Origin: Tardiphaga sp. vice304
GTDB lineage: Bacteria; Pseudomonadota; Alphaproteobacteria; Rhizobiales; Xanthobacteraceae
Direction of reading: 5' to 3'
Assembly: GCF_007018905.1 (NCBI RefSeq)
Contig: NZ_CP041402.1
Location: forward strand, 2,220,001-2,284,000
DNA length: 64,000 nucleotides
This document shows positions 24,881 to 25,311 of the stretch, one piece after another. Under the pieces are notes generated by a model. The model was not told the origin of the DNA and did not search any database. It was given only the letters and a program-made list of their open reading frames with translations. The first letter of the stretch is position 1, and the number at the start of each line of letters is the position of its first letter. A program made the translations under genes and the position numbers.

Positions 24881-25311
24881 GTCATTCCGGGGCGCGAGCG
24901 CGCCAGCGCGAGCGAACCCGGAATCCCGTTGTGTTTTGCGCCGTTCCGCCGAACACTCTGCCGTCATGCCGTATTACGTCTACATGCTGGCATCTAAGAA
25001 GAACGGTGTGCTGTACATCGGCGTCACCAACGATCTCGTTCGCCGCGTCTATGAGCACCGGACGCATGCGGTCAAAAGCTTCACTTCGCGATACAATGTC
25101 GACTCGCTGGTCTGGTTCGAGATCTACGACGATCCGCTGACTGCGATCACCCGTGAGAAGGAACTCAAGAAGTGGCGACGCGCGTGGAAGGTCGCGCTGA
25201 TCGAGGCCGGCAATCCCGAGTGGCATGATTTGTATGCCTCGATCGTGTAAGAGCAATCATGATGGGATTCCGGGTTCGCGCGCGCAAAATGCGCACGCGC
25301 CCCGGAATGAC
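24881..25311. mobile_element. 431-bp GIY-YIG element with 16-bp terminal inverted repeats
   Basis: The element begins gtcattccggggcgcg (24881-24896) and ends with its perfect reverse complement (25296-25311). Each end belongs to a palindromic unit of about 47 bp: the left runs to cccggaatccc at 24917-24927, and the right starts with the exact complement gggattccggg at 25264-25274. Between them lies one gene for a GIY-YIG nuclease. The 122-bp repeats at 14126 and 32226 share both outer and inner ends but hold only a short spacer. No clear target-site duplication is seen. The mobile interpretation is inference from this geometry. Confidence 0.65.
24966..25250 (+). CDS. Small GIY-YIG nuclease-domain protein
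   Basis: 94 residues when started at MPYYVYML; an ATG 30 bases upstream adds an atypical leader. The whole protein is one GIY-YIG domain of the UPF0213 type: V5-Y-M strand, Y17-I-G, the catalytic arginine R27 in [10 protein letters not shown], and a conserved [12 protein letters not shown] helix with glutamates at 64-66. Such single-domain proteins have no well-defined cellular role. It lies between recN and ligA, but the bordering inverted repeats suggest it travels as a unit rather than serving in repair with them. Confidence 0.85.

What the first reader, a model, noticed from the sequence alone, without database searches (positions are those of the whole stretch)
24881..25311. GIY-YIG nuclease gene framed by nested inverted repeats: a candidate undescribed mobile element
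A 94-residue GIY-YIG protein is the only gene in a 431-bp segment whose outer 16 bases (gtcattccggggcgcg) are perfectly inverted at the other end. Inner unit borders (cccggaatccc at 24917 and gggattccggg at 25264) are also exact complements. Each end is therefore a full palindromic unit, and the pair is inverted. This parallels REPIN-RAYT arrangements, where a nuclease mobilises the palindromes beside it, but the enzyme here is of a different fold. The segment interrupts the recN-ligA pair, and ligA's frame runs out of its right end. I know of no characterised element of this type.
Basis: partly seen in the sequence, partly recalled or inferred. Interest (0 to 1): 0.8.

Follow-up and report, generated by a model that had tools for sequence, protein, structure and literature searches.

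The report
Small nuclease paired with hairpin repeats
A tiny DNA-cutting enzyme gene sits between two copies of a short hairpin repeat that is scattered through the same genome, and many of its relatives in other bacteria sit between their own, different hairpin repeats, so these enzymes look like the missing partners of a large family of bacterial repeats.

Summary
In detail: a 94-aa GIY-YIG gene (24966-25250) lies between two inverted palindromic units (24880-24927, 25264-25312). The units fit CGTC-tagged REPs, which a 2013 paper said apparently lack a dedicated transposase (PMC3733652). They occur widely without the gene (79 exact heads in this genome).

The pairing is general. Of 129 loci with both flanks held, 94 have strong inverted repeats across the gene, against 0 of 3103 mock placements; counted once per neighbourhood, 59 of 77. 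Left and right unit classes agree in 71 of 85, and repeat class follows the nuclease tree (8 changes; shuffled mean 40). In 119 genomes, copies of two classes are commoner where the matching gene was found. A second small GIY-YIG family shows no such pair (0 of 12).

"Mobile element interrupting recN-ligA" is not supported: 14 of 29 A-type loci sit there across six genera, the gene is under purifying selection, and similar copies at new sites are rare. Best model: a long-resident nuclease recognising cognate REP hairpins, like RAYT/REPIN but with a hydrolytic enzyme. Cutting and spreading are inferred. The recalled Ssn nucleases (2025; paper not held) are the closest known kind, so I call this a new variant.

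The parts
24880..24927 (+). left A-type CGTC-REP unit: head CGTC, stem ATTCCGGG/CCCGGAAT, long structured loop
   Evidence: stretch 24878-24930 folds as ssDNA at -17.7 kcal/mol, z -2.98
24966..25250 (+). 94-aa GIY-YIG nuclease gene (PF01541), stop included
   Evidence: Y6, Y17, G19, H31, N83 invariant and R26, R27, E64 nearly so in the 31 rows; AF2 pLDDT 92.4; nearest solved fold 1zg2 UPF0213 BH0048 (by sequence only E 0.024)
25264..25312 (-). right A-type CGTC-REP unit, inverted
   Evidence: stretch 25261-25314 folds as ssDNA at -22.3 kcal/mol, z -5.62
14126..14247 (.). gene-less dimer of A-type units (122 bp)
   Evidence: stretch 14124-14250 folds at -50 kcal/mol, z -9.21
32226..32347 (.). 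gene-less dimer of A-type units (122 bp)
36572..36596 (-). unit of the second (C-type) REP class, the class that flanks the genome's other GIY-YIG gene of this family (G000:C1:4707963-4708226)
   Evidence: G000:C1:2256572-2256596

Best explanation
A small GIY-YIG endonuclease and the CGTC-tagged REP hairpins on either side of it form one co-evolving unit. Each nuclease clade goes with its own REP class. SHOWN by sequence: the flanking pair, its class match, the paired stems (tested in the short-loop CTTGA/CTTGT units), the many gene-less dimers, the constraint on the gene. INFERRED: the enzyme recognises the hairpin, most likely in single-stranded DNA, through the unpaired GTC head, loop and tail plus a paired stem, and nicks beside it. 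INFERRED, weaker: nicking followed by host repair and ligation copies the hairpins and gene-less dimers to new places, while the gene itself mostly stays where it is (for the A type, often between recN and ligA), as RAYTs do for REPINs (recalled). Gene-less dimers can arise by loss of the gene from the middle (one case seen).
For: Flanking inverted repeats with score >=40: 94 of 129 loci vs 0 of 3103 placements; one locus per neighbourhood, 59 of 77; outward-headed units on both sides 93 of 129, inward 22 of 129, outward in windows 1 kb away 4 of 125. Left/right class agreement 71 of 85 vs shuffled mean 13.7, max 27 in 2000. Class follows protein tree: 8 changes, minimum 6, shuffled mean 40.0, 0 of 200 as low. 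A copies median 11 in 19 A-gene genomes vs 0 in 100 others, p=3.7e-7; E copies 21 vs 3, p=9.3e-5; cross-tests 0.12 and 0.82 (counts). Stems pair fully (G-T allowed) in 43 of 62 distinct units chosen without regard to pairing, vs mean 3.85, max 9 in 500 shuffles. Named loci: 47 of 78 at >=40 vs 4 of 2279, and 34 of 78 at >=50 vs 0 of 2279. Another small GIY-YIG family in the same bacterial family: 0 of 12. dN/dS 0.03-0.24 in 14 of 15 pairs. Gene remnant in a dimer in G009.
Against: No biochemical test. 8 of 129 loci show no typed unit and no strong IR, 13 only one side. Copy number is loose within the genus: G015 has 64 and G007 43 A heads without an A gene, G002 has the gene and 9; the C class is not significant there (p=0.054), and G013 has 73 C units and no C gene found (assembly 87% complete). 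No target-site duplication or clean insertion was seen. A hydrolytic nuclease does not by itself rejoin DNA.
Confidence: 0.78

Rival explanations
1. The nuclease spreads its own gene by homing: it cuts gene-less cognate REP dimers, and repair from a gene-bearing dimer copies the gene in. The dimers are targets, not products.
For: Gene sits inside a dimer; one gene-less spacer in G000 (L018) shares GTGTTTTGCGC with the gene's 5' side and two more (L012, L021) share TGTTTTGCGC, short matches only; at the rskA site G003, G004 and G017 carry the gene between A units while G015 has a gene-less A dimer.
Against: No recent gene copies within genomes among the loci held: best of 81 paralogue pairs is 80.5% identical. 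The G009 dimer with the gene's last codons points to loss rather than gain. It does not explain how dimers spread.
Confidence: 0.2
2. Genome-maintenance or DNA-uptake role: the enzyme trims or restricts single-stranded DNA at its repeats (hairpin removal, or limiting transformation), and the flanking units are only its regulatory or binding sites.
For: Strong constraint, long residence at recN-ligA, and the recalled report that Neisseria Ssn/NTS affects transformation. A Neisseriaceae relative, Bergeriella denitrificans, carries a CGTC dimer of the ATTCCC-N8-GGGAAT form downstream of the gene.
Against: Does not explain why copy number of a class rises with the matching gene over 119 genomes or why units sit on both sides in inverted orientation.
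Confidence: 0.3
3. Chance or insertion preference: REPs are common between genes, so a small gene ends up between two.
For: REPs of this type are common in the genome and the 2013 paper places REPs between genes (abstract). The mock placements were not restricted to intergenic flanks.
Against: 0 of 3103 placements; 4 of 125 control windows; 0 of 12 for another small GIY-YIG family; class agreement and tree agreement.
Confidence: 0.02
4. An IS/MITE-type transposon with REP ends as terminal inverted repeats and the GIY-YIG protein as transposase, actively moving now.
For: Inverted ends, gene-less dimers of uniform size (15 of the 20 gene-less dimers found are 117-128 bp), variable occupancy of recN-ligA in the genus.
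Against: Of 32 gene pairs with >=85% identity only 1 shares neither flank, and the best within-genome pair held is 80.5% identical; no target duplication seen (undecided).
Confidence: 0.1

Closest known systems
CGTC-tagged REPs (Di Nocera et al. 2013, PMC3733652)
   Same: CGTC/TGTC head, AT at the stem start, 8-9 bp stem, mostly dimers in opposite orientation, most in alpha-Proteobacteria including Bradyrhizobium; Neisseria dRS3 is a member (outline with abstract, sections 6, 14, 16 and passages read)
   Different: The paper says they apparently lack a dedicated transposase and the term GIY-YIG does not occur in its main text; the A-type loop here is far longer than 4-5 nt and this unit's tail is CCC, not CCA
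REPIN-RAYT
   Same: Nuclease gene flanked by its own palindromes, many gene-less copies, class specificity; that RAYTs are mostly single-copy and vertically kept is recalled
   Different: RAYTs are Y1/HUH transposases (PMC3733652 section 16); this enzyme is GIY-YIG, which does not form a covalent Tyr-DNA link (established knowledge, recalled)
Ssn site-specific single-stranded nucleases of the GIY-YIG superfamily (Nat Commun 2025; RECALLED; not found by the searches, and the DOI I tried from memory is not held and may be wrong)
   Same: As recalled: small GIY-YIG enzymes, each with a cognate repeated sequence; the Neisseria one acts on NTS repeats
   Different: I could not check whether that paper covers this clade, the REP-gene-REP layout, the CGTC-REP superfamily or spreading of repeats
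UPF0213 / BH0048-type small GIY-YIG proteins
   Same: Best PDB match by fold, 1zg2 (E 7e-5), and the only one by sequence at E <= 1 (E 0.024)
   Different: 27% identity in the fold match; I know of no report of repeats beside them (not searched)

Membership tests
CGTC-tagged REP | terminal CGTC (or TGTC) head | tested here: met
   both units begin CGTC
CGTC-tagged REP | 8-9 bp stem beginning with A-T | tested here: met
   ATTCCGGG/CCCGGAAT, 8 bp, in the folds and the finder
CGTC-tagged REP | loop of 4-5 nt | tested here: not met
   25 and 26 nt here; section 6 says Bradyrhizobium CGTC-1 loops depart from the rule. Short-loop classes in relatives do meet it
CGTC-tagged REP | tail CCA | tested here: not met
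   this unit's tail is CCC; the paper says most, not all, fit CCA; many A-type relatives have CCA
CGTC-tagged REP | high copy, mostly dimers | tested here: met
   79 exact heads; 20 gene-less dimers found in the window and the loci of 30 of the 79 heads
REPIN-RAYT | HUH/Y1 transposase | tested here: not met
   PF01541 is the only Pfam match; GIY-YIG fold
REPIN-RAYT | nuclease gene flanked by its own palindromes, class specificity | tested here: met
Ssn nucleases (recalled) | small GIY-YIG protein with a cognate repeated sequence | tested here: met
   definition from recall
Ssn nucleases (recalled) | site-specific cutting of ssDNA | not testable with these tools
   needs biochemistry
GIY-YIG homing endonuclease | DNA-binding extension, lies in intron/intein | tested here: not met
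   94 aa, GIY-YIG domain covers residues 3-75; intergenic; weak TIGR01453 hit below cut-off
IS/MITE transposon | target-site duplication at a clean insertion | tested here: inconclusive
   rskA site in G007 lacks gene and units but could be a short-homology deletion

The most novel reading that the evidence does not exclude
Small GIY-YIG nucleases are the dedicated partners of the whole CGTC-REP superfamily across phyla: a second, independent nuclease-palindrome partnership beside RAYT-REPIN, in which a hydrolytic nuclease plus host repair multiplies hairpins while the gene is inherited in place.
Probability: 0.45. Interest if true: 0.85.

Novelty: new variant of a known kind. Interest (0 to 1): 0.66.

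Why it matters
In 2013 the CGTC-REPs, palindromic repeats found mostly in alpha-Proteobacteria, were left without an enzyme (PMC3733652). A class-specific nuclease beside them makes the question of how they arise and spread directly testable, and gives a natural set of nuclease/hairpin pairs from which recognition rules (head, loop, tail, paired stem) can be read. It would also be a convergent counterpart of the REPIN-RAYT partnership.

Tried and rejected
Chance flanking was rejected. A recent insertion into recN-ligA was rejected for the A type: 14 of 29 A-type loci lie there in six genera, plus L126 in a seventh with a one-sided related palindrome. Defence: no PADLOC match for the window protein and one relative (L149); one weak UzuA match, E 0.0054, for L113. 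RNA families: none in 24700-25500 at gathering scores. NCBIfam gave for the window protein only a group I intron endonuclease match below cut-off. Clean insertion with target duplication: looked for at the rskA site, not decided. ligA/GIY co-inheritance at recN-ligA is only moderate: r 0.33, 31 of 2000 permutations as high, 12 genomes. Papers: searches showed no held paper that joins GIY-YIG with REPs; I saw listings (for, 20 of 41 hits, for, 20 of 37, for, 10 of 27). Passages only were seen of PMC1564403 (six terms, no 'palindrom'), PMC9465073 (RayT and GIY-YIG appear in one gene table, not linked) and PMC6006769 (no GIY-YIG).

Limits of the counts. The loci are not independent: 135 loci fall in 80 neighbourhood clusters; one locus per cluster gives 59 of 77. 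The 129 include the window's own locus. Of 137 loci, 2 gave no tblastn hit and 6 had a flank under 200 bp and were dropped. They are a selection from the best matches (one search does not list all), with extra copies of G100 chosen on purpose and rows at contig starts and some lower rows skipped. A few weak relatives (L049, L050, L059, L060) and broken copies (L041, L064) are included. Null placements cover all positions, not only intergenic ones. Repeat classes are my own; tree labels use only loci whose two sides agree and that have an 80-130 aa protein (63 of 71). The tree has 95 columns and 34 of 60 inner branches are weak. The 29 A-type loci include 6 that I added by hand. The A pattern counts only one variant (6 in G000, where one search finds 79 heads); the list of E genes is incomplete; no correction for host relatedness was made, and gene presence is my assignment, broken copies included. 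Units come from every locus held then, not only from beside the gene. Of the 32 pairs, 4 are redundant (L196 is the same locus as L039, L242 as L117) and within-genome pairs cover fetched loci only. One dN/dS pair (L198/L200) has unequal lengths and gives 0.46. One search took the wrong downstream stretch for L294; redid all 12: L294, with a 118-bp flank, scores 32, the other 11 score 16-29.

Full report
What is there. The window (G000:C1:2220001-2284000 of a 5.79-Mb genome) holds at 24966-25250 a 94-aa GIY-YIG gene between two inverted palindromic units at 24880-24927 and 25264-25312. Each unit has a CGTC head, an 8-bp stem ATTCCGGG/CCCGGAAT and a long structured loop; as single-stranded DNA they fold at -17.7 and -22.3 kcal/mol, z -2.98 and -5.62. 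The host looks like the genus Tardiphaga: G004 of the same genus has a contig of the same length (323,956) as the Tardiphaga robiniae contig of L196, with identical gene and flanks; the genus name is my inference.

What the units are. They fit the CGTC-tagged REPs of Di Nocera et al. 2013 (PMC3733652; outline with abstract, sections 6, 14, 16 and passages read) in head, stem and dimer habit, but not in loop length, and the tail here is CCC rather than CCA. [quoted passage not shown] In this genome the 15-mer head occurs 79 times, control 0. In the window and the loci of 30 of these heads I found 21 distinct A-type dimers, 20 without and one with a gene; 15 of the 20 are 117-128 bp long and 5 are 141-151 bp. 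One gene-less spacer (L018) shares GTGTTTTGCGC with the 5' side of the gene and two more (L012, L021) share TGTTTTGCGC; these are short matches.

The pairing is general. A search of 18 genomes of the genus, the window's own included, found matches at E <= 0.001 in 17, three of them only weak, and of 119 genomes of the family in 99. In 129 loci with both flanks held, 94 reach an inverted-repeat score of 40 between the 250-bp flanks; none of 3103 placements of a mock gene in the same loci does. Taking one locus per neighbourhood, 59 of 77 do. A general finder (GTC head plus stem) sees outward units on both sides in 93 of 129, inward ones in 22, and outward ones in 4 of 125 windows 1 kb away. With the score and the typed units joined, 108 of 129 are flanked on both sides, 13 show one side only, 8 nothing. 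Those at 40 or more include records labelled Planctomycetota (L210), Omnitrophota (L238), Myxococcota (L248, L265), Thermodesulfobacteriota (L249), Fidelibacterota (L245) and, by title, Parcubacteria (L209), all of them MAGs or single-cell genomes by title, where contamination is possible; the Nitrospirota (33) and Campylobacterota (27 and 18) loci score lower. In Bergeriella denitrificans (Neisseriaceae, score 46) the dimer downstream of the gene has the ATTCCC-N8-GGGAAT form, which I recall as the dRS3 form; the paper says dRS3 is CGTC-1.

The pairing is specific. Units were sorted into classes by stem, loop and tail. Left and right classes agree in 71 of 85 loci (shuffled mean 13.7, max 27). 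On a tree of 63 proteins the seven classes need 8 changes, the least possible being 6, against a shuffled mean of 40. The genome of the window shows it within one cell: its second gene of this family (G000:C1:4707963-4708226) lies between units of another class, TCGTCCCTGCGAACGCAGGGACCCATA, a class that occurs 43 times there. Over 119 genomes A copies are higher where the A gene was found (median 11 vs 0, p=3.7e-7) and E copies where the E gene was found (21 vs 3, p=9.3e-5), but not crosswise (0.12, 0.82). In the genus the A relation is weaker (49 vs 17, p=0.019) and the C relation is not significant (p=0.054), with clear exceptions. A different small GIY-YIG family of the same bacterial family (L003 type) has no flanking pair in 12 loci: scores 16-32, one of them with a short flank.

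The hairpin matters. In 62 distinct short-loop units picked by head, loop (CTTGA or CTTGT) and tail alone, 43 have fully paired 9-bp stems, G-T allowed, and the 62 show 43 different 5' stems; swapping arms between units gives 3.85 full pairings on average, at most 9 in 500 shuffles. The two units of one gene can differ in stem while sharing loop and tail (for example L142, L144 and L163; in L128 the loops differ by one base).

The enzyme is kept and probably active. Catalytic positions are invariant or nearly so in 31 rows (their roles recalled). The model (pLDDT 92.4) matches 1zg2 (E 7e-5), then Slx1, UvrC and I-TevI at E-values above 0.001. dN/dS is 0.03-0.24 in 14 of 15 pairs, 0.46 in one pair with unequal lengths.

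The gene is a resident. Of 29 A-type loci, 14 lie between recN and ligA, in six genera. Of 32 gene pairs with 85% identity or more, 4 of them redundant, only one shares neither flank. The closest of 81 within-genome pairs is 80.5% identical. In the genus, 6 of 18 genomes have the gene or part of it at recN-ligA (two of these disrupted, G005 and G016; one cut by a contig end, G011); one (G010) cannot be read; 11 have other contents, among them B-type dimers (G008, G014, G017) and, in G009, an A dimer whose spacer still holds the end of the gene. That last case shows how a gene-bearing element can become a gene-less dimer. At the rskA site, G003, G004 and G017 carry the gene, G015 a gene-less A dimer, G007 neither; the G007 junction could be a short-homology deletion.

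Reading. Shown: a class-specific, constrained, mostly resident nuclease gene inside a pair of its own hairpin repeats. Inferred: recognition and nicking of the hairpin. Weaker: that this multiplies the hairpins. It works like REPIN-RAYT but is not a member, since the enzyme is not HUH/Y1. As recalled, the Ssn nucleases (2025) already show GIY-YIG enzymes with cognate repeats, so the kind is known; the tie to the CGTC-REP superfamily, the REP-gene-REP layout, the clade-class match, the paired stems and the residence at recN-ligA are what this work adds, unless that paper has them. I could not check it.

Noticed in passing
G000:C1:230639-230872 (L003, L289) and relatives L290-L300: A second small GIY-YIG family (78 aa): several of the 12 loci lie just 3' of what looks like a tRNA gene end, with a one-sided long palindrome (CCTTCGC...GCGAAGG type) beginning there; possibly another nuclease-palindrome pair (tRNAs read by eye, not by ARAGORN).
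   Followed up: partly
L049, L051, L059, L060, L061 flanks: More distant small GIY-YIG genes lie near palindromes of the TTCGAGACGGC...CTCCTCA..ATGAGG or GTCATCCTGAGGCGC type.
   Followed up: no
recN-ligA spacer in L092-L109: This spacer holds different REP classes in different species of the genus, including a CCCGGAT palindrome pair in G001, so it looks like a repeat hot spot.
   Followed up: partly
dimers in L008, L011, L016, L018, L029: Five A-type dimers of 141-151 bp carry a variant unit with a CCACTCC..GGAGTGG-like inner palindrome.
   Followed up: no
L209 (Parcubacteria MAG contig): The gene lies between a perfect inverted pair CTGTCATCCCGTAGCCGTACGGGATCCAT in a stretch that looks A+T-rich, which argues against contamination from alpha-Proteobacteria there (composition not measured).
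   Followed up: no
G013 (genus): 73 C-type units but no C-type nuclease found; the assembly is 87% complete.
   Followed up: no
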